This document shows positions 1 to 41,036 of a DNA stretch of 41,036 bases, piece after piece. Under the pieces are notes generated by a model. It saw nothing but the letters and a program-made list of their open reading frames with translations. It had not been told where the DNA came from and searched no databases. The stretch comes from a virus: IMG/VR virus record IMGVR_UViG_3300046167_000725, positions 1 through 41,036 of that record. One strand, given 5' to 3'. How positions within the stretch are numbered: the first letter of the stretch is position 1; the number at the start of each line of letters is the position of its first letter. The position numbers and the translations under genes were made by a program.

Positions 1-83
1 GCCCATGTATCTCCTGACTTCTTCATCTCCTCACCACAAATGTCACAGCTAACCTCAATCTTATTGCTTGTTACTAGCTCCAT
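1..83 (-). CDS. Small CxxC zinc-ribbon protein, truncated at window edge
   Basis: The start codon is at 83 and the reading frame runs off the left edge. The complete 52-aa version is at 37060-37218 in the right copy. The visible part contains the first CDIC knuckle. A GGAG sequence lies just upstream of the start, and the gene follows the ArdC-like gene in the leftward operon. Function is unknown. Confidence 0.7.
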   Translation of the reverse strand, partial: MELVTSNKIEVSCDICGEEMKKSGDTW

Positions 84-107
84 TTCTATCTCCTTGGCTG
101 AACCGGA

Positions 108-132
108 TGCGCCCCCGAAGAATGAGGGCGCA
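108..132 (-). promoter_or_regulatory. Intercistronic hairpin between ArdC-like gene and zinc-ribbon gene
   Basis: Perfect 7-bp inverted repeat (TGCGCCC at 108-114, GGGCGCA at 126-132) with an 11-nt loop, in the only sizeable gap of the leftward operon. No T-run follows on the minus strand, so it is more likely an mRNA processing or stability hairpin or a weak attenuator than a full terminator. The right copy (37243-37267) is identical. Confidence 0.5.
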
Positions 133-138
133 ACGGAT

Positions 139-996
139 TCAGGCTGCCTCCTTCATCTTCACTGCTACTGCCTCACTGCAATACCTAAGCACCTTGTTAG
201 CCGCAGTACTGGCCTTGATGAACTTGTTACTGTCATCCTTCAACAGCTTGGCCCAATGCCCTAAGTAACTAGCATGATGCTCAATGTCATAGTCAATGCC
301 ATGCTCAGCACACAAGAACACTGCGGATAACTCTGCTACTAGCTCCTCAAAAGCATACTCAGGTGTGCCAAACCTACCTGTCATGTCACGCTTGAGCCTC
401 TTCTCATGCCCAGTACTGTGTGCTAATTCATGGAACATGGTGGATAGGTAACCCTTCACTGTCTTGAACTGGCACAGGTCAGGCATTGCCACCTCATCTG
501 TTAGCGGCCTGTAACTAGGCTCGCCTTCCCGCATCTTCACACCCAGTGCTACCTGTAACTGAGTAGCTGGTGTTAGATCAGCACCATCATGTACAAACAC
601 AGGCTCCTTAACATCTTCAATGCCATCGAACTGCTCAATGCTGGCGTTGTTAGTAACAATCATGAACGGATGCCGGGTAATATCACCTGCATCATTGCGT
701 TCCATCTTGCTAAAAAAATAAATGGGAAATGTTTTCCTTACATCATCTCCCTTCTCACCCTTGAACTTGAACCCAAGACTGATTGCCTTCTTGACTGAGA
801 TGTATCGGTTAGATGTATACCCATACTTCTCGTTGTGTACCCAACAGTTAACAGCATTACCAATGCCATACTTGTAATCACTGAGATGGTTCATTGGCAT
901 ACCACCCTTAGATACCCACCCCTTTTGCCAAGGGGCAGTACCATTTTCAATGGCTTCTAGTATTGGCCTAACAACTAGGTCTGACTTAGCTGACAT
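139..996 (-). CDS. ArdC-like anti-restriction protein (ssDNA-binding domain plus zincin metallopeptidase domain)
   Basis: 285 aa. The N-terminal half (about residues 5-130) has the ArdC-type ssDNA-binding domain pattern: GTAPWQKGW near the start, a short NAVN motif, then a Y-rich strand region. The C-terminal half carries a zinc-peptidase motif HELAH (189-193), followed by STGH, RL and an EELVAEL helix (217-223) supplying the likely third ligand. This is the two-domain order and usual size of plasmid and phage ArdC proteins, which protect incoming DNA from restriction. It sits in an operon of small early-type genes, ending 55 nt before the zinc-ribbon gene start and overlapping the preceding gene by 11 nt. 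The left copy is intact; the right copy carries several frameshifts. Family assignment is firm; the anti-restriction role is inferred from the family. Confidence 0.88.
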   Translation of the reverse strand: MSAKSDLVVRPILEAIENGTAPWQKGWVSKGGMPMNHLSDYKYGIGNAVNCWVHNEKYGYTSNRYISVKKAISLGFKFKGEKGDDVRKTFPIYFFSKMERNDAGDITRHPFMIVTNNASIEQFDGIEDVKEPVFVHDGADLTPATQLQVALGVKMREGEPSYRPLTDEVAMPDLCQFKTVKGYLSTMFHELAHSTGHEKRLKRDMTGRFGTPEYAFEELVAELSAVFLCAEHGIDYDIEHHASYLGHWAKLLKDDSNKFIKASTAANKVLRYCSEAVAVKMKEAA

Positions 997-1330
997 AAGA
1001 TGTACCTCCCATTGCTACTTGAGTCTGTGCCTGACGTATCCGCTGAGCATCAAACTGCTGATGCACATTGGTATAGTCCTGCTGAATCCTCTCGAACGAG
1101 GCCATCGCTATCTGATATAGCTGTGAATGATCTGCATCTTCAGATATAAACTTCAGCACATCATCCATATCAAGGCCGTCACTTGCATCTAGATACTGCA
1201 TCACCTCATCACTGCTAATGTCATTGTGTTCCATCAATTCAAGGATGCCCCTCACATCTGTGTGTACTTCTATCTCGCCACAATAATCTTCAGCATCAAT
1301 CGTTAGATAACCTTTCACTTCGTATGTCAT
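986..1330 (-). CDS. Hypothetical acidic protein, 114 aa
   Basis: No family recognised. The start at 1330 has a GAGGAG ribosome-binding site 8 nt upstream. The protein is acidic in its first two-thirds (a run rich in D and E around residues 35-70, including the sequence SSDEVMQYLDASDG) and Q-rich near the C terminus, suggesting mostly helical structure. Its 3' end overlaps the ArdC-like gene by 11 nt and its 5' end overlaps the upstream 56-aa zinc-ribbon gene by 35 nt, so translation is probably coupled along the operon. The right copy at 38125-38471 is broken by two one-base insertions. Confidence 0.7.
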   Translation of the reverse strand: MTYEVKGYLTIDAEDYCGEIEVHTDVRGILELMEHNDISSDEVMQYLDASDGLDMDDVLKFISEDADHSQLYQIAMASFERIQQDYTNVHQQFDAQRIRQAQTQVAMGGTSYVS

Positions 1331-1466
1331 TTAAACTCTCCTCATTAATAGTCAATGGCACGTCATCACAAATAAAACATGCCTCATCTGGTTGCCATAA
1401 CGCACCACACCCAGTGCATGGCACCAACATTACAGGTGTGAGTTCTACCCAATCGCTAGTCTCCAT
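1296..1466 (-). CDS. Small zinc-ribbon protein, 56 aa
   Basis: The frame opens with METSDWVELTPVMLVPCTGC and contains two CxxC knuckles, CTGC (17-20) and CFIC (30-33), ten residues apart, typical of a mini zinc ribbon. The ATG at 1466 lies close to the end of the preceding gene. The frame is open in both terminal copies; differences between them include TTG to TTA (synonymous) and one I to T change, as expected for a real gene. It overlaps the next gene by 35 nt in another frame, which is unusual. Function unknown; such proteins in phages are often nucleic-acid or protein-binding adaptors. Confidence 0.6.
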   Translation of the reverse strand: METSDWVELTPVMLVPCTGCGALWQPDEACFICDDVPLTINEESLNDIRSERLSND

Positions 1467-1473
1467 CAGAATC

Positions 1474-1690
1474 TCAATACAAAATCAGAGGCTTAGCCTT
1501 CTTCAACTTGCCATCCACCCCATAATAAATAGGGACAGTCAATGCTCAGATCCTTCTCCTTCTTGCCTTTAAACACACGGTACTTCTTGCCATCCTCTGC
1601 TTTGAAATCCTTTAGTCGCTTAACAACACGGTAAATAACAACATCACCCAACATTAAGGTGTCACTCTGTGGTGCTATGTAATAACTCAT
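1474..1690 (-). pseudogene. Hypothetical basic protein, frameshifted in this copy
   Basis: The start at 1690 has a strong AAAGGAGG site and overlaps the previous stop as ATGA. The intact version is the 73-aa gene at 38607-38828, starting MSYYIAPQSDTLMLGDVVIY. Here one extra A at about 1541-1542 shifts the frame after the KEKDLS sequence. Removing it restores the reading to a stop at 1474-1476. The last residues also differ from the right copy because of a separate 2-nt net deletion there. Either a sequencing error or a natural null allele; the lysine-rich body suggests nucleic-acid or RNA contact, but no family is recognised. Confidence 0.65.
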
Positions 1691-1839
1691 GCCGCCTCCT
1701 TTACTGGTGCATATCCCATGGCACCTACACACTCACACATGTCCTGTAGGTACACTGCTATCAAGTCATCATGGATACTGCTATTGAACTTAACCTCTGC
1801 TATTAAATGCCCACTCTCATCTATCAATTTATACTTCAT
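1687..1839 (-). CDS. Hypothetical protein, 50 aa
   Basis: The start was chosen at 1839 (MKYKLIDESG...) because this ATG and the purine-rich GGAGGAT/GGAGAG sequence before it are kept in both terminal copies, while the region upstream is altered by a 5-nt indel. The stop overlaps the next start as ATGA. The sequence has a beta-strand-like opening followed by a helix containing the CEC motif. No family recognised. Right copy: 38825-38977. Confidence 0.65.
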   Translation of the reverse strand: MKYKLIDESGHLIAEVKFNSSIHDDLIAVYLQDMCECVGAMGYAPVKEAA

Positions 1840-1866
1840 CATCTCTCCATCCTCCGAGTTGGTTGA

Positions 1867-1894
1867 GTGATCCCGCACTTGGGCGGGGGATCAC
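1867..1894 (-). promoter_or_regulatory. Leader hairpin in the leftward operon
   Basis: Inverted repeat GTGATCCC (1867-1874) and GGGATCAC (1887-1894), extendable with a small bulge, in the transcript between the 24-aa peptide gene and the first 50-aa gene. One arm overlaps the stop codon of the 24-aa gene. Conserved in the right copy. A translation-linked attenuator or a stability hairpin are both possible. Confidence 0.5.
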
Positions 1895-1965
1895 GAAACC
1901 AGCGAGTAAATTATTATTAATACACTCAGCACTATCAGTGCCTGCAAATGTTCATCCTTCCACAT
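1891..1965 (-). CDS. 24-aa single-span membrane micropeptide
   Basis: The peptide starts MWKDEHLQAL and continues with one hydrophobic span rich in I, L and V (about residues 9-23), giving a short charged N terminus and one membrane helix. A consensus GAGGAGG site precedes the ATG at the right distance, and the gene is the first in the leftward operon, about 25 nt downstream of the predicted transcription start. The right copy at 39024-39098 has one difference, a synonymous GTG to GTA. This supports real coding despite the length. Its role is unknown; small phage membrane peptides can act as toxins, holin-like proteins or superinfection-exclusion factors, none of which can be claimed here. 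Confidence 0.6.
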   Translation of the reverse strand: MWKDEHLQALIVLSVLIIIYSLVS

Positions 1966-1994
1966 GTCTACCTCCTCACTATTGATTAATCCAC

Positions 1995-2022
1995 ATTGTA
2001 ACACATTGAGTTAGATAATCAA
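1995..2022 (-). promoter_or_regulatory. Sigma70-type promoter for the leftward early operon
   Basis: Read on the minus strand: -35 TTGATT (2022-2017), 16-bp spacer, -10 TACAAT (2000-1995). The predicted start is near 1988, just before the GAGGAGG site of the 24-aa gene. The site is unchanged in the right copy (39128-39155). Confidence 0.7.
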
Positions 2023-2039
2023 ACTTTATTTAAGCGAGG

Positions 2040-2081
2040 AAACTTTGTGGCCCCGCGTAAGCAATGGGGGCCACACAGTTT
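2040..2081. repeat. Long interrupted inverted repeat upstream of the leftward promoter
   Basis: AAACT (2040-2044) and GTGGCCCC (2047-2054) pair with GGGGCCAC (2067-2074) and AGTTT (2077-2081), a 13-bp stem with one 2-nt mismatch. It lies 18 bp upstream of the -35 box. No T-run on either strand, so an operator or a transcription-insulating element fits better than a terminator. Identical in the right copy. Confidence 0.55.
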
Positions 2082-2535
2082 CTGAGTGTCTTCCTTTATG
2101 TTTGCTTCTCCAGCATCCCCCACTGGTGTCTGCTCAGTGGTTCCTCATCTCCAGCATCCCACGGTGTCTGCTATGTCTTCCTCATCTCCAGCATCCCAGA
2201 ACCTAGCCTGTGTGTTGTGTGTGTAATTCCAAAGTCAAAAGCAAAGTCAAAAGCTTGGATGCCTTCGCAAGCTCAGATACTGCACTCTTTATGACGGTGG
2301 ATGCTACGGCTGGGCTGGTGCTATCCGAACCGGCTCCAGTCGGCTTGGGGACGCCTCCTTCACCTGACATCTAACAACCAGCTAGACATGGGAGGGGTCA
2401 ATTCTGGTTATTAGCACCATGCCATTATGCTTATTTAGTCTGATCAATCAGTAACAATCTGTTGCGATCTTGCCCAATCCATGAGAGAATCTGTTTTGTA
2501 GCAATGAGGCTACAATTATATTTGAGGCTATTCAT
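2082..2535. other. Non-coding spacer with tandem repeats; poor coding signal
   Basis: This 454-nt stretch separates the leftward and rightward early genes. Three copies of TCTCCAGCATCCC occur at 2107, 2148 and 2185, within imperfect 37-41-bp repeats that also share GGTGTCTGCT. A GTCAAA tandem repeat follows at 2231-2254. The part from 2160 to 2250 is the most variable stretch between the two terminal copies. A minus-strand frame (2203-2370, 55 aa) stays open in shorter form in the right copy but lacks a ribosome-binding site. Upstream of 2536 there is a TACAAT (2509-2514) that could be a -10 box, with no convincing -35, and GAGGCTA occurs twice just before the next gene. Confidence 0.6.
2231..2254. 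repeat. GTCAAA tandem repeat, REP-like element A
   Basis: Two perfect units of AAAGTCAAAAGC (2231-2242, 2243-2254), followed by GGATGCC and GCAAGCTC. The same order of parts (AARGTCAAARGC twice, then ATGCC, then GCAAGCT) recurs at 3345-3386. The right copy has only one unit at this site, preceded by a GC-rich hairpin segment. Confidence 0.75.
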
Positions 2536-2985
2536 ATGACTAAGTTATACACACCACGCGACATCAAACTTGCCCTTCTTGATATGTATTCTTATGGGTT
2601 GTTCGGTCGGGCTGGTCGAGCAAGCGGTGAAATGAAAATGACGCTATGCCCTGACACCGCCAACGAGTTGAGAATTTGCTTCAACGTCTGGGGCTACAAG
2701 CTCACCGAAGAGAAGGCTATTCAATGGGCGGCCAAAGAACACCGGAAGGCCCAAGGTAAGAAACCCGACGACGCGCCCACTTTTTATTTTGGTGTAGAGG
2801 ACAAGCAGAGCAAAGCGTTTTTTATTGATCCCGTCGAAAGCCTGATGGGAGAGGATGAGATCGACAGCGGCAACGGACCGCAGGATGACGGGGCTATAGT
2901 GGCTCGCGATACTCAGAACCGAGCGAATGCCAAGACCCGCGCCAAGATGAACCAAGCCGAGCGTGACACGGAGGTAGCGGCATGA
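2536..2985 (+). CDS. Hypothetical early protein, 149 aa
   Basis: No family recognised. Starts MTKLYTPRDIKLALLDMYSY; the middle has WAAKEHRKAQGKKPDD and aromatic-rich strands, and the last 30 residues are charged and helix-prone (NRANAKTRAKMNQAERDTE). A TGAGG sequence lies about 10 nt upstream of the start. It is the first of three overlapping rightward genes, with ATGA coupling to the next. The right copy (39717-40166) differs by few residues but by many synonymous codons, for example six codons in a row within AGRASGE, so purifying selection acts on the protein. Confidence 0.75.
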   Translation: MTKLYTPRDIKLALLDMYSYGLFGRAGRASGEMKMTLCPDTANELRICFNVWGYKLTEEKAIQWAAKEHRKAQGKKPDDAPTFYFGVEDKQSKAFFIDPVESLMGEDEIDSGNGPQDDGAIVARDTQNRANAKTRAKMNQAERDTEVAA

Positions 2986-3152
2986 ACCAGACAGCGAGCG
3001 AGTATCTCACAGCCGAGTATGGCGAGACCCAGCGAGCGATTCAGCTTGAGTTTGATTGGCTTGAGTCTGTGCTACTGGGAGGACCGGCGGAAGTCTACTG
3101 TGAAGTCTGCGGCATTCACTATGATGAGGAGGACCCATGCACCCAGCACTAG
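2982..3152 (+). CDS. Small CxxC protein, 56 aa
   Basis: Starts MNQTASEYLTAEYGETQRAI at the ATGA overlap with the previous gene. It contains one CEVC knuckle (40-43) and a further C and H close to the end (CTQH), which could together form a zinc site. Acidic overall. It overlaps the next gene by 16 nt in another frame, and both frames are kept in the right copy (40163-40333). Function unknown. Confidence 0.65.
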   Translation: MNQTASEYLTAEYGETQRAIQLEFDWLESVLLGGPAEVYCEVCGIHYDEEDPCTQH

Positions 3153-3247
3153 AGGATGAGGAGGAGATTCAGGTTTGCACAGAGTGTCAGGGTTCCAACC
3201 AGATCACACTCCCTGACGGCTCAACCCAGTGTGGAAACTGTGACTAA
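3137..3247 (+). CDS. Mini zinc-ribbon protein, 36 aa
   Basis: Starts MHPALEDEEEIQ and then holds two knuckles, CTEC (14-17) and CGNC (32-35), in the classic CxxC-x14-CxxC zinc-ribbon arrangement. A GAGGAGGA purine tract just upstream serves as ribosome-binding site. It is the last gene before a strong terminator. In the right copy (40318-40428) the cysteines are unchanged. Very small zinc ribbons of this kind are common in phage early regions; targets unknown. Confidence 0.65.
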   Translation: MHPALEDEEEIQVCTECQGSNQITLPDGSTQCGNCD

Positions 3248-3265
3248 GCTGCCGAAACGTAATGA

Positions 3266-3289
3266 CCCCCAGCAATGGGGGTTTTTTTT
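3266..3289 (+). terminator. Rho-independent terminator
   Basis: CCCCC (3266-3270), six-base loop, GGGGG (3277-3281), then eight T. It ends the three-gene rightward operon 2536-3247 and is kept at 40447-40470. Confidence 0.85.
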
Positions 3290-3321
3290 GAAAATCGCCT
3301 CGCTTCGCTCGGGTAGAATGT

Positions 3322-3368
3322 CGCGGCAAGCCGCGTCGTTTATTAAGGTCAAAGGCAAGGTCAAAGGC
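3322..3368. repeat. REP-like element B: AA-centred palindrome plus GTCAAA repeats
   Basis: CGCGGC-AA-GCCGCG (3322-3335) is followed by two units of AAGGTCAAAGGC (3345-3356, 3357-3368) and then ATGCC and GCAAGCT as in element A. Arms are perfect. Unchanged in the right copy. Confidence 0.75.
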
Positions 3369-3683
3369 ATAAATGCCCCAGCAAGCTGGGAGAAGCAACT
3401 GCGCTTTTGCTATGACCTAGCACTGATAGGTGTATAGCTTTGATTAACTTTTACTTTATGGGGACTAGATGTGTGGCAACCAACCTGCCGGTTCCAACGT
3501 TTTTGCTAAGAGAAGTCACTGAAACGTGAGGGAGTGGTACATAGACCAACCTATTATCACTGATCACCTTCGGGAGTAACCGAGGGCTTAGTGGTTCCCA
3601 GCGGTTTGATCGTACTAATAGTTAATCTTGGGTGCCATCTTGACACTCACTGGTACGCATCCATCGGGTCAACTGCCACGGCG

Positions 3684-3718
3684 GGTCAAGGTCAAGGGCT
3701 ACGTTGGCGCAAGCGCCA
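3684..3718. repeat. REP-like element C: GTCAAG repeats plus AA-centred palindrome
   Basis: GGTCAAGGTCAAGG (3684-3697) precedes TGGCGC-AA-GCGCCA (3705-3718). Same two components as element B in reversed order. Confidence 0.7.
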
Positions 3719-3728
3719 GCCGTCTTTT

Positions 3729-3745
3729 CGAGGGGGTACCCCTCG
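3729..3745. repeat. Perfect palindrome with GTA centre
   Basis: CGAGGGG-GTA-CCCCTCG, extendable by one T/A pair on each side. It lies between elements C and D, about 175 bp before the terS start. Confidence 0.7.
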
Positions 3746-3753
3746 AGCTCCCC

Positions 3754-3832
3754 AAGGTCAAAGTCAAAGTCAAAGGCGAAGCCGCGGCGGAGCCGCACCT
3801 TCCTTACCCCCCCATACCCCCCCAAGGGGGGG
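3754..3832. repeat. REP-like element D: four GTCAAA hexamers and a C7-AA-G7 palindrome
   Basis: Four hexamers (AAGGTC, AAAGTC, AAAGTC, AAAGGC) at 3754-3777, then a GC-rich GCCGCGGCGG segment, two C7 runs, and C7 (3817-3823), AA, G7 (3826-3832). Runs like these are prone to length errors in sequencing, yet both copies agree. Confidence 0.7.
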
Positions 3833-3919
3833 CAACGGCAACGTCAGGACCGGAGGTGCCGCTCTAACTTACTAGAAAAACGTATGCTAGACTTTACCGA
3901 AAGGTCAGGATTCTTATCT

Positions 3920-8414: not shown

Positions 8415-10081
8415 GTACTGACGCTATTAGCTTAGTCACGATCATTGCGTTAATTCGCAAGGAGATTGCTGAGTCTCGCGTTGAGGGTAAGGCAGGCAAG
8501 GATGGTAAGCAGGGTGGTACAGGTGAGCGCGGTGCAAAAGGTGACACCGGCCCACAAGGTAAGGCTGGCCCTAAAGGTGGTGACGGCAAGCAGGGTAAAG
8601 CTGGTAAAGATGGCAAGGACGGCAAGGACGGTAAGGATGCTGAAGAAGCTGTAGGCATTGCTAACATTGAGCAGGATGTTGATAACGCCATTGTCGTGAC
8701 CATGACTGATGGCACGACCTACACCATTGAAATGCCTTTAGGCCAGAACACAGAGGTTCACTACAAGGTAAGTGGTGGTGGCAGTGGTGGTGGATCAGGC
8801 ACTGTAGACTTATCTGGTTATGTAGAAAAGCCCACCAGCAACACAGCTTGGATGGTGTACAAGAAGGGCGCGCCAAACAAAGGCTGGTCACCTGTTACCA
8901 CTGACCTAGTAGCTACTAACTCCGATGTTGTGTTTAGAGATTCTAAGGGGCGATTTAAGTCCACCAATAATGTTCCTGAGCTTAACAATCAGCTTGAGGT
9001 AAACCGCTGGTTCCTTGAGCAGATTGAAGGCATTGAAGAGTTAGAAACTACGCAAGAGGCCATCATTGATCAGATTGACAAAAGCCTTGATGACCAAGCA
9101 AAGATTGTTGCCAAGGTAGAAGAGCTTTCTGTCACTAAGGGCGCAGTGGCCCGATACACGGTCAAGGGCATACAGGTTAATGTAGCCACTAGAAATGGTG
9201 AGCTATATGTCGACAGTCCTAATGCGGCAGATGTTACCTTCATTAGCTTTGCGCCATTTGACTCAAGCGGACAGGCCACTAAGCCTGCAAACCCTGATGA
9301 CATAGTTGAGTTCGTCGAAGCGGTTGGCTCTAGGAATGCTGGTGAGATTACTCGGTACAAGGTAGTCAGCGGAGATTATAACGCGCTGGCAGTTGAGTAT
9401 TTGTCAGGCACTAACAACTTTGAGGTGGATGAGGCTGAAGAAGTTTATGTCTACCCACAGAATGAGGCAGGCGTCAGCCAAGAGTATGTAGACCAAGGGC
9501 TTTTATCTAAGCTAGATAACTCAGGAGCTAACCAGCTACCTGATGACACTGATTGGAAGATTAGGCAACACACCTCAGAAGGCAAGAACAAGACACTGAT
9601 ACACGGCGTTGGTGGTCGGCTTGGCGTTTATAACTTAAAGGAGCCTACCGAGTCACATCATGCGGCCACTAAGAGCTATGTAGATTCTAGGTCTAATGCT
9701 GGCGATGGTGTCTCTGCCTCTAGACCACCCGGCCTCAAGTTCATGTGCAGTATCGTTAACTTACCGAATGGGTATTTCCAGTGGTGGGTAAAGGAAAGCA
9801 CGGGTAATCAGCACCTAGAGCTTGCCACTACAGATAGAGATGGCATTGCTTGGGGAACTAATACGCCGCGTGAAGACGTTCGCTATAGCGATAACGTACC
9901 CTTCACTATCTGGGAAGTATCAGGTGGTGGGTGGAAGATGAAAGTAACAGGCACTATCAGCAGGATTGATTTCCATCCTGACCACGCTCTTTGCTATGTC
10001 TCCAGCAAGACTGCCCTGAATGGAGGCAACTTTGCTAATGGGTCTGGGCCTTACTACATAACCATCTCAGGAATTTTTTGA
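8411..10081 (+). CDS. Collagen-like fibre protein
   Basis: 556 aa. An N-terminal hydrophobic helix (about 5-20) is followed by 17 Gly-X-Y triplets (26-76, Lys/Asp-rich), a beta region, a GGGSGGGSG linker (about 120-130), and a long C-terminal part with a coiled-coil-like stretch (about 205-245: EELETTQEAIIDQIDKSLDD) and a beta-rich end. Such trimeric collagen-like proteins decorate phage heads or form fibres. Its place between portal and scaffold, not with the other fibre-like genes, leaves head fibre and tail fibre both possible. ATGA overlap with the portal gene. Confidence 0.75.
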   Translation: MSTDAISLVTIIALIRKEIAESRVEGKAGKDGKQGGTGERGAKGDTGPQGKAGPKGGDGKQGKAGKDGKDGKDGKDAEEAVGIANIEQDVDNAIVVTMTDGTTYTIEMPLGQNTEVHYKVSGGGSGGGSGTVDLSGYVEKPTSNTAWMVYKKGAPNKGWSPVTTDLVATNSDVVFRDSKGRFKSTNNVPELNNQLEVNRWFLEQIEGIEELETTQEAIIDQIDKSLDDQAKIVAKVEELSVTKGAVARYTVKGIQVNVATRNGELYVDSPNAADVTFISFAPFDSSGQATKPANPDDIVEFVEAVGSRNAGEITRYKVVSGDYNALAVEYLSGTNNFEVDEAEEVYVYPQNEAGVSQEYVDQGLLSKLDNSGANQLPDDTDWKIRQHTSEGKNKTLIHGVGGRLGVYNLKEPTESHHAATKSYVDSRSNAGDGVSASRPPGLKFMCSIVNLPNGYFQWWVKESTGNQHLELATTDRDGIAWGTNTPREDVRYSDNVPFTIWEVSGGGWKMKVTGTISRIDFHPDHALCYVSSKTALNGGNFANGSGPYYITISGIF

Positions 10082-34484: not shown

Positions 34485-35102
34485 ATGAGTCAGGACACTG
34501 GGATAGTATCTATCCACGGTAAAAACTACCGCACTGTAGCTTTGCGGGTTAATGAGTTCCGATCTGCTTACCAAGATTGGGGCATCCACACTGAAGTTGT
34601 TAGTGTTAGTGATCAGTCTGTTGTTATGAAGGCATGGATCACTGATCCTGATGGCAGGGTTAGAGGTGTTGGTCACGCTGAAGAATGGCGAGCCGCATCT
34701 AAGATTAACTCTACCTCTGCTCTCGAAAACTGTGAGACCTCTGCACTGGGCAGGGCGCTTGCCGCTATTGGCTTGGCTGGTACTGAGTATGCCTCTGCTG
34801 ATGAGGTAGCTGGTGCTATCCACCAACAGAAAGTGGCTGAGTCTACTGACTACCTGCTTGACCACATGGAAGCAGTCCGCAACAACTGGGAATCTATCAC
34901 TGCTATCAAGCAATCTATTGCTGATAACGATATGACCTATGGTTGCCAACTGTACTCTGAGCTTAGCCATGAGACACAGGAGAGACTGTACAAAGCACCT
35001 ACCAAAGGTGGCATCTTCACTACTGAAGAGCGCACCTACATGAGATCCAATGAATGGAACACCACTATGAAAGAAGTCATCAAGGAGACTGCTAATGGAT
35101 AA
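34485..35102 (+). CDS. Single-strand annealing protein (ERF/Rad52-like)
   Basis: 205 aa from the ATG at 34485, preceded by AAGGAG at 9 nt; a longer frame from 34458 would pass through that site. The first 75 residues form a beta-rich domain (TVALRVNEFRSAYQDWG, then VVMKAWITDPDGRVRGVGHA), followed by the family hallmark STSALENCETSALGRALAAI (76-95) and EYASADEVAGA (101-111). C-terminal half helical and charged. Promotes annealing of complementary ssDNA in phage recombination and concatemer formation. No exonuclease partner gene was seen. Overlaps the next gene by 8 nt. Confidence 0.75.
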   Translation: MSQDTGIVSIHGKNYRTVALRVNEFRSAYQDWGIHTEVVSVSDQSVVMKAWITDPDGRVRGVGHAEEWRAASKINSTSALENCETSALGRALAAIGLAGTEYASADEVAGAIHQQKVAESTDYLLDHMEAVRNNWESITAIKQSIADNDMTYGCQLYSELSHETQERLYKAPTKGGIFTTEERTYMRSNEWNTTMKEVIKETANG

Positions 35103-35415
35103 GGTATATGACAAGCCACTGCCCGAGACAGGCATCCGAACCTTCGTACCTAGTGACCAAGTGTATGCCTTTGCTGGCACACCACAGCAGGAAGGGAAGT
35201 CAATCATTGCTAACATGGTCGTACACCCTAAAGAGTTATGGGAATTTGTTAAGACCTACAAGGCCCAGTACGGTGCTGAAGTAGAGAAGGTTCATCTCAA
35301 CATAAAGCTTAGTCGTGGTGGTAAGTACTACATCACTGTTGATGAGCGCATGTCAGAGCGTGAAGGTGGCGCACCTCAAGCCCCAGCTAAATCAACACTG
35401 CCTTGGGAGAATTGA
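35095..35415 (+). CDS. Possible ssDNA-binding protein, 106 aa
   Basis: Starts MDKVYDKPLPETGIRTFVPS and is coupled to the annealing gene. It has a mixed alpha/beta core with VEKVHLNIKLSRGGKYYITV, then a flexible Gly/Pro/Ala tail ending in LPWEN, an aromatic-acidic tip reminiscent of SSB C-terminal tips that recruit partner proteins. The SSB idea is inference from tail, size and operon; no OB-fold motif was proven. Confidence 0.5.
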   Translation: MDKVYDKPLPETGIRTFVPSDQVYAFAGTPQQEGKSIIANMVVHPKELWEFVKTYKAQYGAEVEKVHLNIKLSRGGKYYITVDERMSEREGGAPQAPAKSTLPWEN

Positions 35416-35418
35416 TAC

Positions 35419-35616
35419 ATGTTTGACTTTGTAAAGTATGAAGAGCTAAAAGAAATCTTCCAGTGTCGCAAGATCAATATCCTCTGCGACATACTGGATA
35501 AGGAGAACATTCCTTACATGATGAATAGCAAGAACAGACCAATGGTGTCACGTCAGGAGCTAGCTAAACGGCTGTCACAGACAAAGCCTGTAGACCCTAC
35601 CATACCTACCTCTTAG
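35419..35616 (+). CDS. DUF4224-like small protein, 65 aa
   Basis: Residues 6-52 resemble DUF4224 (a short helical domain with a GI-P-x-x-x-N-x-x-NRP-x-V core; here ENIPYMMNSKNRPMVSRQEL). In other phages and prophages this domain often sits beside integrase or excision genes, but no integrase is present here. Last gene of the rightward recombination operon. It may be a small DNA-binding accessory protein. Confidence 0.55.
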   Translation: MFDFVKYEELKEIFQCRKINILCDILDKENIPYMMNSKNRPMVSRQELAKRLSQTKPVDPTIPTS

Positions 35617-35861
35617 TCCTGTTCGTTGCTCTCCGTGGCGCATGTGGCTCGTAGTAGCTACCTCTGTGCCACATCCCCCTCTCTCTGTCCTAGTAATTAG
35701 GCTGTCGCCTCTCTCTTTTCCACGTTGTGTGCTAGCCCCGACACTTTCCCCTTATTCTCTGATTCCACCTACAGAACCAGTGCGCGGCAGGGTTTATACA
35801 TTGTGCAGTGCCGGTAAGTGATGACAGCTAGCGGTGCCATCCGAGGAGCCGCGCCTATGAA
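35617..35861. other. Intergenic region between convergent operons
   Basis: 245 nt without a gene. A two-part hairpin lies at 35642-35674: ATGTGGC pairs with GCCACAT, with GTAG and CTAC pairing inside. No T-run follows, so termination here would be weak or Rho-dependent. The right part contains several GC-rich stretches and no other clear signal. Confidence 0.5.
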
Positions 35862-36059
35862 TTAGCTAAATGCCTCTCCATGCAAGAACTCTAGGTGTTC
35901 AAGTGCATCATCTTCAATCTTGAAGTCAATGACCTGACCCTGATACTTGCAGTCATCTAGGTAATAGTCATACAAACCATTGCCTACTGGAGTGATAGAG
36001 GATTTACCCCAATCAATATCATCTGTGCTTACCTTCATAACAATCCGGATCTCTCTCAT
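35862..36059 (-). CDS. Hypothetical acidic protein, 65 aa
   Basis: Last gene of the leftward early operon. Starts MREIRIVMKVSTDDIDWGKS, strand-rich N terminus and acidic C-terminal helix (IEDDALEHLEFLHGEA). Start overlaps the upstream stop by 4 nt. No family recognised. Confidence 0.6.
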   Translation of the reverse strand: MREIRIVMKVSTDDIDWGKSSITPVGNGLYDYYLDDCKYQGQVIDFKIEDDALEHLEFLHGEAFS

Positions 36060-36259
36060 TTGTCCTTCTCCTCTAATGCAGTCCTTATCATGTGACTAAT
36101 AGCTTGCCTGTTATTGACAGTAAACTTTAGCTCGTCACTCAGCCTGTCCTTATATATCTTCAGCATATCTAGTATCTCGTTGGTTACTCCTATTGTTGTT
36201 AGCTTTTCACCACGGGCTGTCGCAGAGAATATTGATTCTGAATCTATTTCGTCGCTCAT
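36056..36259 (-). CDS. Possible ribbon-helix-helix protein, 67 aa
   Basis: After an acidic tail, residues 20-64 read as a ribbon-helix-helix: strand LTTIGV, helix NEILDMLKIYKDRLSDELKF, then NNRQAISHMIRTALEEK as second helix. This is the layout of small phage repressors such as Arc, although the inter-helix part is long. In operon position it could regulate the early operon itself. Overlaps of 4 nt on both sides. Confidence 0.5.
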   Translation of the reverse strand: MSDEIDSESIFSATARGEKLTTIGVTNEILDMLKIYKDRLSDELKFTVNNRQAISHMIRTALEEKDK

Positions 36260-36474
36260 GTATTTGATACCCCTGTAATGTCAGTGTATGTAGTGCCTTT
36301 GCTAGTCAGTATCTCTGTCATTAGCTCCATGTCTTCATCATCTAATGTGCGGAGTACCATGCTCTTAGCATCAGCCTCCCCACTAGCTATGACTGTTGCC
36401 ACATAAGAAGTAGACCTGTTAAAAGACACCTTGTATGTACTCCATACTTTAAGTTGTACAACATTACTGCTCAT
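36256..36474 (-). CDS. Hypothetical protein, 72 aa
   Basis: Starts MSSNVVQLKVWSTYKVSFNR. Two beta-strand-like segments (residues 5-29) followed by a helix (GEADAKSMVLRTLDDEDMEL) and a Thr-rich C terminus; the overall pattern is a small alpha/beta domain. Overlaps of 4 nt with neighbours indicate coupling. No family recognised. Confidence 0.6.
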   Translation of the reverse strand: MSSNVVQLKVWSTYKVSFNRSTSYVATVIASGEADAKSMVLRTLDDEDMELMTEILTSKGTTYTDITGVSNT

Positions 36475-36650
36475 GCTCGCTCCTTAGCTAACTGCAACTC
36501 TTCATCTGCTATGACCTCATCCCAACACCACTTATGATAGGTCATCTCGTCCGTTTTATCTGGCACAGGTATGTGACTAGGCAAGTCATCAGGCCAGTAC
36601 TTAGTATCTTCATCGCTAGTGATAGCTTCACAACACCACTCACATTTCAT
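36471..36650 (-). CDS. Small cysteine-rich protein, 59 aa
   Basis: The ATG at 36650 was chosen over the upstream GTG at 36659 because it overlaps the preceding stop (ATGA) and has GAGG 8 nt upstream. Opens MKCEWCCEAIT and later has HKWCWDEV, giving a CxxCC pair and a distant H/C pair, a likely zinc site. C-terminal end is a charged helix. Third CxxC-type protein of this operon. Function unknown. Confidence 0.6.
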   Translation of the reverse strand: MKCEWCCEAITSDEDTKYWPDDLPSHIPVPDKTDEMTYHKWCWDEVIADEELQLAKERA

Positions 36651-36832
36651 GATGAACACCTCGCTCTTGCTATTGCCATACTCTCCTCATACATCTGATC
36701 TAGCTTGCCCCATCTATCACTGTTGCCAAGCCACTCATCAAATGACTTGGGTGGAGTGTCATCAGTACAGGACAAGTAGATGTCATACTCATCTTCATTA
36801 GACCCACGGGTTTGTGTCTGCCAATCACTCAT
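36647..36832 (-). CDS. Hypothetical acidic protein, 61 aa
   Basis: Starts MSDWQTQTRGSNEDEYDIYL; acidic and aromatic, with a WLGNSDRWGKLDQMY centre and a helical end. The start overlaps the upstream gene end by 8 nt. Small acidic proteins in early operons can mimic DNA or bind host enzymes, but nothing in the sequence proves it. No family recognised. Confidence 0.6.
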   Translation of the reverse strand: MSDWQTQTRGSNEDEYDIYLSCTDDTPPKSFDEWLGNSDRWGKLDQMYEESMAIARARCSS

Positions 36833-37058
36833 CTTCTGTCTCCTTCTGAAACACTGGCACGTATTTGTAGAGTTCAGTACCTACTGTTGTCCTTACCAAT
36901 CGGCACTGCTCCTTGCCGTAGGTAGATATATGCCGAGCATACATATCTAATGCGTCAGCTTTCTCTGGGTCAGAGTAGTAATGTCTCCAGCCTTCACTCA
37001 TCTCATGCCGGTACTCCACTCTGTATATAACCTGATTTGAATTGTAGTCTTCGCTCAT
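36825..37058 (-). CDS. Hypothetical protein, 77 aa
   Basis: The start at 37058 has GAGGAG 7-8 nt upstream; a longer frame to 37073 lacks one. Begins MSEDYNSNQVIYRVEYRHEM; aromatic and charged, with a helix (DPEKADALDMYARHISTYGK) between strand regions, consistent with a small alpha/beta fold. The previous gene ends one base before this start. No family recognised. Confidence 0.6.
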   Translation of the reverse strand: MSEDYNSNQVIYRVEYRHEMSEGWRHYYSDPEKADALDMYARHISTYGKEQCRLVRTTVGTELYKYVPVFQKETEDE

Positions 37059-37059
37059 A

Positions 37060-37218
37060 TTAAATCTCCTCAATGATTGTTACTTGATGGTCTGATACTT
37101 CTGACTCATACAGCATGTGCTTACATGGATAACAGGCCCATGTATCTCCTGACTTCTTCATCTCCTCACCACAAATGTCACAGCTAACCTCAATCTTATT
37201 GCTTGTTACTAGCTCCAT
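37060..37218 (-). CDS. Zinc-ribbon protein, 52 aa
   Basis: Complete version of the gene cut at position 1. Starts MELVTSNKIEVSCDICGEEM with GGAG upstream. Knuckles CDIC (13-16) and CYPC (29-32) with 12 residues between, then a short helix. Links the ArdC-like gene to the small-gene run further left, showing that the operon is continuous in the circular genome. Function unknown. Confidence 0.65.
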   Translation of the reverse strand: MELVTSNKIEVSCDICGEEMKKSGDTWACYPCKHMLYESEVSDHQVTIIEEI

Positions 37219-37273
37219 TTCTATCTCCTTGGCTGAACCGGATGCGCCCCCGAAGAATGAGGGCGCAACGGAT

Positions 37274-38135
37274 TCAGGCTGCCTCCTTCATCTTCACTGC
37301 TACTGCCTCACTGCAATACCTAAGCACCTTGTTAGCCGCAGTACTGGCCTTGATGAACTTGTTACTGTCATCCTTCAACAGCTTGGCCCAATGCCCTAAG
37401 TAACTAGCATGATGCTCAATGTCATAGTCAATGCCATGCTCAGCACACAAGAACACTGCGGATAACTCTGCTACTAGCTCCTCAAAAGCATACTCAGGTG
37501 TACCAAACCTACCTGTCATGTCACGCTTGAGTCTCTTCTCATGCCCAGTACTGTGTGCTAATTCATGGAACATGGTGGATAGGTAACCCTTCACTGTCTT
37601 GAACTGGCACAGGTCAGGCATTGCCACCTCATCTGTTAGTGGCCTGTAACTAGGCTCGCCTTCCCGCATCTTCACACCCAGTGCTACCTTGTAACTGAGT
37701 AGCTGGTGTTAGATCAGCACCATCATGTACAAACACAGGCTCCTTTAACATCTTCAATGCCATCGAACTGCTCAATGCTGGCGTTGTTAGTAACAATCAT
37801 GAACGGATGCCGGGTAATATCACCTGCATCATTGCGTTCCATCTTGCTAAAAAAGTAAATGGGAAATGACTTACGCTACATCATCTCCCTTCTCACCCTT
37901 GAACTTGAACCCAAGACTGATTGCCTTCTTGACTGAGATGTATCGGTTAGATGTATACCCATACTTCTCGTTGTGTACCCAACAGTTAACAGCATTACCA
38001 ATGCCATACTTGTAATCACTGAGATGGTTCATTGGCATACCACCCTTAGATACCCACCCCTTTTGCCAAGGGGCAGTACCATTTTCAATGGCCTTCTAGT
38101 ATTGGCCTAACAACTAGGTCTGACTTAGCTGACAT
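37274..38135 (-). pseudogene. ArdC-like gene, frameshifted right copy
   Basis: Corresponds to 139-996. Single-base insertions at about 37688, 37747, 37870 and 38093 break the frame; only the C-terminal 133 residues with HELAH and EELVAEL stay open (37274-37675). Four +1 insertions within 450 nt, some beside substitutions, suggest low-quality consensus at the end of the assembly more than natural decay. Confidence 0.7.
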
Positions 38136-38471
38136 AAGATGTACCTCCCATTGCTACTTGAGTCTGTGCCTGACGTATCCGCTGAGCATCAAACTGCTGA
38201 TGCACATTGGTATAGTCCTGTTGAATCCTCTCGAAAGAGGCCATCACTATCTGGTATAGCTGTGAATGATCTGCATCTTCAGATATAAACTTCAGCACAT
38301 CATCCATATCAAGGCCGTCACTTGCATCTAGATACTGCATCACCTCATCACTGCTAATGTCATTGTGTTCCATCAATTCAAGGATGCCCTCTTACATCTG
38401 TATGTACCTCTATCTCACCAGCAATAATCTTCAGCATCAATCGTTAGATAACCTTTCACTTCGTATGTCAT
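38125..38471 (-). pseudogene. 114-aa hypothetical gene, frameshifted right copy
   Basis: Corresponds to 986-1330. Start codon and ribosome-binding site at 38471 are kept, but one-base insertions near 38390 and 38421 break the N-terminal part. The last 83 codons remain open with one A to V replacement. Confidence 0.65.
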
Positions 38472-38607
38472 TTAAACTCTCCTCATTAGTAGTTAATGGC
38501 ACGTCATCACAAATAAAACATGCCTCATCTGGTTGCCATAACGCACCACACCCAGTGCATGGCACCAACATTACAGGTGTGAGTTCTACCCAATCGCTAG
38601 TCTCCAT
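38437..38607 (-). CDS. Small zinc-ribbon protein, right copy
   Basis: Corresponds to 1296-1466. Same 56-codon length, same four cysteines. Nucleotide changes include synonymous and conservative ones. The start overlaps the stop of the upstream gene (TGATG), a coupling that is lost in the left copy. Confidence 0.6.
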   Translation of the reverse strand: METSDWVELTPVMLVPCTGCGALWQPDEACFICDDVPLTTNEESLNDIRSERLSND

Positions 38608-38828
38608 CAGAATCTCAATACAAATTCAGACTTAGCCTTCTTCAACTTGCCATCCACCCCATAATAAATAGGGACAGTCATGCTCAGATCCTTCTCCTTC
38701 TTGCCTTTAAACACACGGTACTTCTTGCCATCCTCTGCTTTGAAATCCTTTAGTCGTTTAACAACACGGTAAATAACAACATCACCCAACATTAAGGTGT
38801 CACTCTGTGGTGCTATGTAATAACTCAT
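38607..38828 (-). CDS. Hypothetical basic protein, 73 aa (intact copy)
   Basis: Start at 38828 with AAAGGAGG and ATGA overlap. Strand-rich first half (MLGDVVIYRVVKRLKDF), then a Lys-rich middle (KKYRVFKGKKEKDLSM) and the ending VDGKLKKAKSEFVLRF, missing in the frameshifted left copy. The intact frame here shows that the left copy, not this one, carries the disabling indel. No family recognised. Confidence 0.65.
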   Translation of the reverse strand: MSYYIAPQSDTLMLGDVVIYRVVKRLKDFKAEDGKKYRVFKGKKEKDLSMTVPIYYGVDGKLKKAKSEFVLRF

Positions 38829-38977
38829 GCCGCCTCCTTTACTGGTGCATATCCCATGGCACCTACACACTCACACATATCCTGTAGGTACACTGCTATC
38901 AAGTCATCATGGATACTGCTATTAAACTTAACCTCTGCTATTAAATGCCCACTCTCATCTATCAATTGATACTTCAT
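38825..38977 (-). CDS. Hypothetical protein, 50 aa, right copy
   Basis: Corresponds to 1687-1839, with K to Q at residue 4. The start is preceded by GGAGGATAGAG. The 5-nt difference from the left copy falls just before the start codon, which helps fix the start. Confidence 0.65.
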   Translation of the reverse strand: MKYQLIDESGHLIAEVKFNSSIHDDLIAVYLQDMCECVGAMGYAPVKEAA

Positions 38978-39023
38978 CTCTATCCTCCGAGTTGGTTGAG
39001 TGATCCCGCACTTGGGCGGGGGA

Positions 39024-39098
39024 TCACGAAACCAGCGAGTAAATTATTATTAATACACTCAGTACTATCAGTGCCTGCAAATGTTCATCCTTCCACAT
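39024..39098 (-). CDS. 24-aa membrane micropeptide, right copy
   Basis: Corresponds to 1891-1965, same peptide with one synonymous change. GAGGAGG site and promoter spacing unchanged. Confidence 0.6.
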   Translation of the reverse strand: MWKDEHLQALIVLSVLIIIYSLVS

Positions 39099-39127
39099 GT
39101 CTACCTCCTCACTATTGATTAATCCAC

Positions 39128-39155
39128 ATTGTAACACATTGAGTTAGATAATCAA
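39128..39155 (-). promoter_or_regulatory. Leftward early promoter, right copy
   Basis: TTGATT, 16-bp spacer, TACAAT on the minus strand, as at 1995-2022. Confidence 0.7.
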
Positions 39156-39716
39156 ACTTTATTTAAGCGAGGAAACTTTGTGGCCCCGCGTAAGCAATGG
39201 GGGCCACACAGTTTCTGAGTGTCTTCCTTTATGTTTGCTTCTCCAGCATCCCCCACTGGTGTCTGCTCAGTGGTTCCTCATCTCCAGCATCCCCCCACTC
39301 TGTCTGTGTCTTCCTCATCTCCAGCCTCCCACAACCTAGCCTGTCTGTTGAGCGCGTTGTTCCGCGCATAAGCGAGCCGTCAGGATCGCGAAAAAAACGC
39401 GAGCTACGCTCGCCGCCTACGGCAAAGTCAAAAGCTTAGATGCCTTCGCAAGCTCAGATACTGCACTCTTTATGACGGTGGATGCTACGGCTAGGCTGGT
39501 GCTATCCGAACCGGCTCCAGTCGGCTTGGGGACGCCTCCTTCACCTAACATCTAACAACCAGCTAGACATGGGAGGGGTCAATTCTGGTTATTAGCACCA
39601 TGCCATTATGCTTATTTAGTCTGATCAATCAGCATTAATCTGTTGTGATCTTGCCCAATCCATGAGAGAATCTGTTTTGTAGCAATGAGGCTACAATTAT
39701 ATTTGAGGCTATTCAT
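39156..39716. other. Non-coding spacer, right copy, with REP-like insertion
   Basis: Corresponds to 2023-2535. Between about 39290 and 39425 it differs strongly: a GC-rich segment with GCGAG-CTACG-CTCGC and other palindromic pieces, and a poly-A7, stands where the left copy has GT-repeats and a GTCAAA unit. Only one AAAGTCAAAAGC unit remains (near 39424). Flanks are nearly identical. Confidence 0.65.
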
Positions 39717-40166
39717 ATGACTAAGTTATACACACCACGCGACATCAAACTTGCCCTTCTTGATATGTATTCTTATGGGTTGTTCGGTCGGGCTGGCCGC
39801 GCTAGTGGCGAGATGAAAATGACGCTCTGCCCTGACACCGCCAACGAATTAGAAATTTGCTTTAATGTCTGGGGCTACAAGCTCACCGAAGAGAAGGCTA
39901 TTCAATGGGCGGCCAAAGAACACCGGAAGGCCCAAGGTAAGAAACCCGACGACGCGCCCACTTTTTATTTTGGTGTAGAGGACAAGCAGAGCAAAGCGTT
40001 TTTTATTGATCCCGTCGAGAGCCTGATGGGAGAGGATGAGATCGACAGCGGCAAAGGACCGCAGGAGGACGGGGCTATAGTGGCTCGCGATACTCAGAAC
40101 CGAGCGAATGCCAAGACCCGCGCCAAGATGAACCAAGCCGAGCGTGACACGGAGGAGGCGGCATGA
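39717..40166 (+). CDS. Hypothetical early protein, 149 aa, right copy
   Basis: Corresponds to 2536-2985. Amino-acid changes are few (R to E at 47, N to K and D to E near 112-116, V to E near the end), while codon changes are many and mostly synonymous. The reading frame has no indel. Confidence 0.75.
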   Translation: MTKLYTPRDIKLALLDMYSYGLFGRAGRASGEMKMTLCPDTANELEICFNVWGYKLTEEKAIQWAAKEHRKAQGKKPDDAPTFYFGVEDKQSKAFFIDPVESLMGEDEIDSGKGPQEDGAIVARDTQNRANAKTRAKMNQAERDTEEAA

Positions 40167-40333
40167 ACCAGACAGCGAGCGAGTATCTCACAGCCGAGTA
40201 TGGCGAGACCCAGCGAGCGATTCAGCTTGAGTTTGATTGGCTTGAGTCTGTGCTACTGGGAGGACCGGCGGAAGTCTACTGTGAAGTCTGCGGCATTCAC
40301 TATGATGAGGAGGACCCATGCACCCAGCACTAG
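40163..40333 (+). CDS. Small CxxC protein, 56 aa, right copy
   Basis: Corresponds to 2982-3152; sequence unchanged in the coding part compared. Confidence 0.65.
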   Translation: MNQTASEYLTAEYGETQRAIQLEFDWLESVLLGGPAEVYCEVCGIHYDEEDPCTQH

Positions 40334-40428
40334 AGGATGAGGAGGAGATTCAGGTTTGCACAGAGTGTCAGGGTTCCAACCAGATCACACTACCTGACGG
40401 CTCCACCCAGTGTGGAAACTGTGACTAA
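40318..40428 (+). CDS. Mini zinc-ribbon protein, 36 aa, right copy
   Basis: Corresponds to 3137-3247; two nucleotide changes, one of them synonymous (TCA to TCC), cysteines kept. Confidence 0.65.
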   Translation: MHPALEDEEEIQVCTECQGSNQITLPDGSTQCGNCD

Positions 40429-40446
40429 GCTGCCGAAACGTAATGA

Positions 40447-40470
40447 CCCCCAGCAATGGGGGTTTTTTTT
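40447..40470 (+). terminator. Rho-independent terminator, right copy
   Basis: Same C5-loop-G5-T8 structure as at 3266-3289. Confidence 0.85.
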
Positions 40471-41036
40471 GGAAATCGCCTCGCTTCGCTCGGGTAGAAT
40501 GTCGCGGCAAGCCGCGTCGTTTATTAAGGTCAAAGGCAAGGTCAAAGGCATAAATGCCCCAGCAAGCTGGGAGAAGCAACTGCGCTTTTGCTATGACCTA
40601 GCACTGATAGGTGTATAGCTTTGATTAACTTTTACTTTATGGGGACTAGATGTGTGGCAACCAACCTGCCGGTTCCAACGTTTTTGCTAAGAGAAGTCAC
40701 TGAAACGTGAGGGAGTGGTACATAGACCAACCTATTATCACTGATCACCTTCGGGAGTAACCGAGGGCTTAGTGGTTCCCAGCGGTTTGATCGTACTAAT
40801 AGTTAATCTTGGGTGCCATATTGACACTCACTGGTACGCATCCATCGGGTCAACTGCCACGGCGGGTCAAGGTCAAGGGCTACGTTGGCGCAAGCGCCAG
40901 CCGTCTTTTCGAGGGGGTACCCCTCGAGCTCCCCAAGGTCAAAGTCAAAGTCAAAGGCGAAGCCGCGGCGGAGCCGCACCTTCCTTACCCCCCCATACCC
41001 CCCCAAGGGGGGGCAACGGCAACGTCAGGACCGGAG
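40471..41036. other. Non-coding hairpin-rich region, right copy, cut at window end
   Basis: Corresponds to 3290-3855 with two substitutions only (near 40472 and 40820). All REP-like elements B, C and D and the GTA-centred palindrome are present. The window ends about 65 nt before the terS start position of the left copy. Confidence 0.7.

What the first reader, a model, noticed from the sequence alone, without database searches (positions are those of the whole stretch)
35862..37218. Leftward early operon of small genes around an ArdC protein: candidate anti-defence and takeover island
Joined through the circle (35862-37218 plus 83-1965), one promoter drives about 13 tightly overlapping genes: a membrane micropeptide, an ArdC-type anti-restriction protein, several zinc ribbons, acidic proteins and a possible ribbon-helix-helix regulator. 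Most have no recognised family. Unknown small genes beside a known anti-restriction gene often counter other host defences.
Basis: partly seen in the sequence, partly recalled or inferred. Interest (0 to 1): 0.65.

Follow-up and report, generated by a model that had tools for sequence, protein, structure and literature searches.

The report
Phage early operon carrying anti-restriction ArdC
A marine phage, probably of Luminiphilus-type bacteria, carries a leftward operon of 13 small genes, one of which clearly encodes the known DNA-protecting protein ArdC; the other twelve are real, fast-changing genes, but nothing shows that they counter host defences.

Summary
Joining the contig's overlapping ends (1-3855 and 37136-41036, 98% identical) gives one leftward run of 13 tightly packed genes, g01-g13, behind a plausible sigma-70 promoter. 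All 13 occur in the same order in a relative (L003), with four times more synonymous than non-synonymous change per site. One gene is a genuine ArdC: both Pfam domains, HEXXH, full-length similarity to the solved R388 ArdC. The other twelve match no family convincingly.

Related phages keep a leftward gene block in the same place, between recombination/integrase genes and terminase, and refill it. A relative with 97% identical TerL shares only ArdC (74%) of these genes. About 11 of 14 such blocks carry an ArdC, from two divergent lineages. Several relatives have an integrase and an attP copied from tRNA-Arg(ACG); that sequence occurs exactly in 20 GTDB contigs, all Halieaceae/Luminiphilus. The window lacks both.

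Best reading: an immediate-early accessory operon in which ArdC shields incoming DNA from restriction, plus lineage-specific takeover genes. 'Anti-defence island' is only partly supported: one known anti-defence gene, no second. The ribbon-helix-helix call was not confirmed. ArdC is a known kind; the small families are new.

The parts
1995..2022 (-). sigma-70-like promoter TTGATT-16-TACAAT in front of g01, followed by the palindrome GATTAATC (possible operator)
   Evidence: a similar TTGATT-17-TACGAT site stands before g01 in L003
1891..1965 (-). g01, 24-aa predicted membrane micropeptide
   Evidence: 96% identical in L003, 7 of 8 differences synonymous; good Shine-Dalgarno
1687..1839 (-). g02, 50 aa, no family
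   Evidence: 84% identical in L003
38607..38828 (-). g03, 73 aa, basic (pI 9.8); intact in the second terminal copy, frameshifted in the first (about 1493-1693)
   Evidence: 84% identical and intact in L003
1296..1466 (-). g04, 56 aa, zinc-ribbon-like (CTGC...CFIC)
   Evidence: 98% in L003, 73% over 37 aa in L004
986..1330 (-). g05, 114 aa, acidic (pI 4.1); weak match to phrog_6638 (unknown function, E 0.002)
   Evidence: found only in L003 in the viral contig scan
139..996 (-). g06, ArdC, 285 aa: ArdcN + MPTase-PolyVal, HELAH...FEEL
   Evidence: Pfam 2.5e-14 and 8.3e-37; phrog_7245 anti-restriction 3.9e-54; R388 ArdC structure 6i89/6sna 1e-31 over residues 10-284
37060..37218 (-). g07, 52 aa, zinc-ribbon-like; its start is also at 83 in the first copy
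   Evidence: a ribbon-like gene follows ArdC in all five relatives, 24-94% identity
36825..37058 (-). g08, 77 aa, no family
   Evidence: identical in L003
36647..36832 (-). g09, 61 aa, acidic; last 25 aa shared with a ribbon-fusion protein of L005
36471..36659 (-). g10, 62 aa, CxxC...HxxC zinc-binding type
   Evidence: 75% in L004; relatives in the L049 and L057 blocks
36256..36474 (-). g11, 72 aa, no family
   Evidence: 68% in L004
36056..36259 (-). g12, 67 aa; proposed ribbon-helix-helix regulator, not confirmed
35862..36059 (-). g13, 65 aa, beta-hairpin plus C-terminal helix; with the ribbon g07 the most widespread of the small genes
   Evidence: relatives in L003, L004, L007, L054, L058; AlphaFold pLDDT 86.5; no fold match
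35419..35616 (+). excisionase-like gene at the convergent border of the operon; an integrase follows it in relatives but is absent here
   Evidence: phrog_4764 1.3e-6
34485..35102 (+). gene of the block converging on the operon (phrog_11717, unknown function); the label SSAP in my scripts is only a guess
37136..41036 (.). second copy of 1-3855 (terminal overlap), containing broken ArdC and g05

Best explanation
This is the immediate-early accessory operon of a marine phage from an integrase-bearing lineage (host clade inferred as Halieaceae/Luminiphilus). Host RNA polymerase starts at the promoter at 2022-1995 on incoming DNA and reads leftward through 13 overlapping genes to the convergent border at 35862. 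ArdC (g06) binds DNA through its ArdcN domain and shields the unmodified genome from restriction, above all type I, until it is modified or replicated. The other twelve are lineage-specific small proteins whose likeliest collective job is host takeover and regulation; each individual function is unknown. Shown: the genes, ArdC identity, conserved position, rapid turnover of content, tRNA-Arg integration in relatives. Inferred: early timing, one transcript, anti-restriction activity, host of the window itself.
For: ArdC domains and full-length match to R388 ArdC, a protein with demonstrated activity against HsdRMS (PMC7213743). All 13 genes conserved in order in L003 under purifying selection. 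Same leftward location in relatives, with two ArdC lineages found in about 11 of 14 blocks examined. The leftward block of more distant relatives contains primase-helicase and DNA polymerase. Integrase beside the block in L005, L057, L060, L061, L065, L069 and L084; att sequence exactly matched in 20 contigs, all Halieaceae/Luminiphilus. Type I HsdR in 35 of 140 genomes of that family, including G028 and G030, which carry the att tRNA.
Against: No expression data. Promoter-like sites are no more frequent than chance in this region. The ArdcN match stops at profile position 97 of 123. Twelve of 13 genes have no functional assignment. Three blocks of relatives (L057, L060, L084) lack ArdC, so it is not essential. 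The window itself lacks the att core and integrase, so its host is inferred from relatives.
Confidence: 0.6

Rival explanations
1. True anti-defence island: several of the twelve small genes each counter a different host defence, like the leading regions of conjugative plasmids.
For: Known anti-restriction gene in the operon; fast turnover of content at a fixed place; several very acidic small proteins (g04, g05, g10, g13), as in DNA-mimic inhibitors. Plasmid leading regions cluster anti-defence genes and uncharacterised genes (PMC11541004).
Against: No second anti-defence gene in the window by Pfam, PHROGs, NCBIfam or PADLOC, and no second anti-defence family among the top families of 83 proteins, most of them from relatives' blocks, apart from single methyltransferase hits. 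The acidity shift against late genes is not significant (p = 0.095).
Confidence: 0.2
2. Ordinary early region without a special defence role: ArdC acts in the phage's own DNA metabolism (single-strand DNA binding, or protease on DNA-bound proteins), and the rest are regulators and takeover proteins.
For: R388 ArdC is a ssDNA-binding protein resembling the Spartan and IrrE proteases (PMC7213743); a replication gene lies close to the operon; SutA-type RNA-polymerase-binding domains occur in leftward blocks of relatives.
Against: ArdC is absent from some relatives' blocks and comes in two divergent lineages, unlike a core replication factor; R388 ArdC was needed only when the recipient had HsdRMS.
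Confidence: 0.15
3. The apparent operon is partly an artefact of the contig join.
For: The two terminal copies differ by about 2%, including 16 indel columns in the operon part.
Against: L003 carries the same 13 genes contiguously, and the second copy in the window is itself contiguous with 35862-37218.
Confidence: 0.02

Closest known systems
ArdC of plasmids R388/pSa (PDB 6I89, 6SNA)
   Same: ArdcN + C-terminal zincin (MPTase-PolyVal), HEXXH and FEEL motifs, similar over residues 10-284
   Different: Phage-borne; best phage and plasmid hits only about 32-39% identical; ArdcN match stops short of the profile's end; sits in an operon of unknown small genes; activity untested
phrog_7245 phage anti-restriction protein (relatives in Caulobacter phiCbK, Brevundimonas jumbo phages and others)
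   Same: Same family, E 3.9e-54; 56 phage records carry relatives
   Different: All under 60% identity; many of those phages are far larger, and g05 and g12 have no match in that collection
Anti-defence islands in the leading region of conjugative plasmids (PMC11541004)
   Same: Clustered, accessory, proposed to act on entry, contains an anti-restriction gene
   Different: Only one recognisable anti-defence gene; a phage, not a conjugating plasmid
Polyvalent-protein ArdC-N/MPTase conflict proteins (PMC5512222)
   Same: Same two domains; that study calls ArdC-N rare in the phage type
   Different: Here a stand-alone two-domain protein, not a large multidomain polyvalent protein

Membership tests
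ArdC anti-restriction family | ArdcN domain (PF08401) over its curated cut-off | tested here: met
   54 bits against 22.6, profile 7-97 of 123
ArdC anti-restriction family | MPTase-PolyVal zincin domain with HEXXH and downstream Glu | tested here: met
   126.5 bits against 27.5; HELAH and FEEL invariant in the five aligned proteins; E218 aligns with R388 E229
ArdC anti-restriction family | Full-length similarity to a solved ArdC | tested here: met
   6i89/6sna, E 1e-31, residues 10-284
ArdC anti-restriction family | Protects unmodified DNA from restriction in vivo | not testable with these tools
   needs an experiment
Anti-defence island | Two or more recognisable anti-defence genes clustered | tested here: not met
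   only ArdC found
Anti-defence island | Accessory content at a fixed genomic place | tested here: met
Phage early operon | Transcribed opposite to late virion genes and sharing direction and place with replication genes in relatives | tested here: met
Phage early operon | Expressed before late genes | not testable with these tools
   no RNA data
Ribbon-helix-helix regulator (g12) | Sequence or fold match to the RHH family | tested here: inconclusive
   no Pfam, NCBIfam or PDB hit; single-sequence model is one long helix
Temperate phage | Integrase and attP | tested here: not met
   present in several relatives, absent in the window; PF00589 alone is insensitive here, the L005 integrase was found by homology and phrog_1

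The most novel reading that the evidence does not exclude
The block is a phage counterpart of the plasmid leading-region anti-defence island: a fixed exchange slot, anchored by one of two ArdC lineages, in which several unrelated micro-proteins each disarm a different defence of marine Halieaceae.
Probability: 0.2. Interest if true: 0.65.

Novelty: new member of a known kind. Interest (0 to 1): 0.4.

Why it matters
It gives a defined, testable set of twelve small gene families with no relatives found outside this phage lineage, sitting beside a genuine anti-restriction gene. It also links an uncultured phage group to a probable host clade (Halieaceae/Luminiphilus) through its attachment site, so the genes could be tried against restriction systems of a real host. 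If several proved to be counter-defence genes, the variable early slots of marine phages would be a good place to look for more.

Tried and rejected
Known defence or anti-defence families for the small genes: none. Host by terminase homology in GTDB genomes: none by scan, hits in only 5 of 140 family genomes, mostly weak. g12 relative L036: rejected, the match lies inside an unrelated 441-aa protein. Fold searches of g13 and g12: no match better than E 0.4. No near DNA match of the first 20 kb among 50,697 phage records, no tRNA or Rfam RNA in the window. DNA-mimic idea from acidity: difference from late genes not significant. Contig-join artefact: rejected because L003 carries the operon whole. 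Intrinsic terminator at the operon end: none found by the scan. The labels NinB, HNH, SSAP, gp11 and gp12 in my scripts are guesses, not tool results.

Full report
What is there. The window is a viral contig (a virus record of 41,036 bases) whose ends overlap: 1-3855 repeats at 37136-41036 with 97.8-98.3% identity, so the genome is a circle or terminally redundant molecule of about 37.1 kb. Joined, a leftward run of 13 genes extends from 1965 to 35862. The two terminal copies each carry errors: the second breaks ArdC and g05, the first breaks g03. Compared with L003, 16 indel columns separate the copies in this part, eight agreeing with each copy.

Are the genes real. All 13 occur in L003 in the same order at 83-100% identity. 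Over the 12 small genes there are 33.5 synonymous changes in 458 sites and 34.5 non-synonymous in 1861 sites. Against L004, where six of the genes remain, dN/dS is 0.08-0.24 for five of them; g04 is saturated at synonymous sites. Eight neighbouring pairs are separated by 1 nt or overlap by 4-35 nt. A mosaic break is visible: the part 35600-37218 is 99.5% identical to L003, the rest 92.9%.

ArdC. g06 passes both Pfam cut-offs, belongs to phrog_7245 anti-restriction protein and aligns over its whole length with the solved R388 ArdC. R388 ArdC was needed for conjugation only when the recipient had HsdRMS; its protease activity was not required, and DNA binding was proposed as the mechanism (PMC7213743). 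The window protein keeps HELAH and the glutamate aligned with R388 E229. Relatives exist in 56 phage and 3026 plasmid records, all below 60% identity.

The other twelve. None has a convincing family. g04, g07 and g10 have paired Cys/His motifs. g05 and g12 were found in the viral contig collection only in L003 (the L036 hit is spurious). g13 has relatives in L003, L004, L007, L054 and L058, and its model (pLDDT 86.5) matches no known fold. g12 could not be confirmed as ribbon-helix-helix.

The slot. A TerL profile found 54 related contigs. Where they reach far enough, a leftward block lies between the recombination genes and the terminase. In the near group about 11 of 14 blocks carry an ArdC-type protein: six close to the window's or the window's own (74-95% among relatives), the rest a divergent lineage (34-38% to the L006 ArdC). 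L057, L060 and L084 have blocks without it. The contig of L006 has 97% identical TerL and 91% identical major head protein (half covered), yet shares only ArdC (74%) among the 13 genes at the threshold used. So the block is exchanged independently of the backbone. In more distant relatives (TerL 60-67%) the same leftward block contains primase-helicase, DNA polymerase and proteins with a SutA RNA-polymerase-binding domain, which supports an early assignment.

Integration and host. L005, L057, L060, L061, L065, L069 and L084 have an integrase converging on the block (phrog_1 2.3e-29 for L005). In the five regions read, the sequence beyond the integrase holds a 45-nt segment that I read as the 3' half of tRNA-Arg(ACG) (ARAGORN finds no complete tRNA, as expected for half a gene). 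A degenerate pattern covering these segments matches 20 contigs in the GTDB genome collection, all titled Halieaceae or Luminiphilus. The window keeps an excisionase-like gene but no integrase or att core was found. Its host is therefore inferred from relatives. HsdR of type I systems is found in 35 of 140 genomes of that family.

Conclusion. Early timing is supported by architecture but not measured. The step from 'beside ArdC' to 'anti-defence' for the other genes is not supported by any test here, nor excluded.

Noticed in passing
L005 about 9840-9900; L057, L060, L061, L084 near the integrase: attP cores equal to the 3' half of a tRNA-Arg(ACG), matched exactly only in Halieaceae/Luminiphilus genomes, giving a host clade for this uncultured phage group.
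   Followed up: yes
L070 4141-4422, L074 3938-4309, L091 1414-1698, L081 3959-4198, L005 4361-4558: Small proteins of relatives with a SutA-type RNA-polymerase-binding domain (PF20661, E 2e-8 to 1e-5; the L081 and L005 ones are below the curated cut-off): candidate phage modifiers of host RNA polymerase.
   Followed up: partly
L058 7051-7518, L070 7306-7755, L081 6971-7402, L085 1972-2391, L091 3432-3827, L092 7671-8063: A family recurrent in these blocks (phrog_3754, unknown function) with a conserved Cys-containing N-terminal motif; perhaps papain-like, by eye only.
   Followed up: no
window 2217-2241 versus 39350-39422: The two terminal copies differ by a block of about 25 versus 72 nt in addition to 2% divergence, so the ends may come from different population variants.
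   Followed up: partly
window 2107-2198 and 39240-39330: Tandem 37-nt repeat (2.4 copies, TCTCCAGCATCCC...) upstream of the operon promoter.
   Followed up: no
window 3345-3775 and 40526-40956: Clustered AAGGTCAAAG-type repeats before and at the start of the terS frame; 16 matches in the window against 3 expected.
   Followed up: no
L006 4206-5456: The block corresponding to the window's 34485-35616 (phrog_11717-type and xis-like genes) is inverted relative to the operon in this relative.
   Followed up: no
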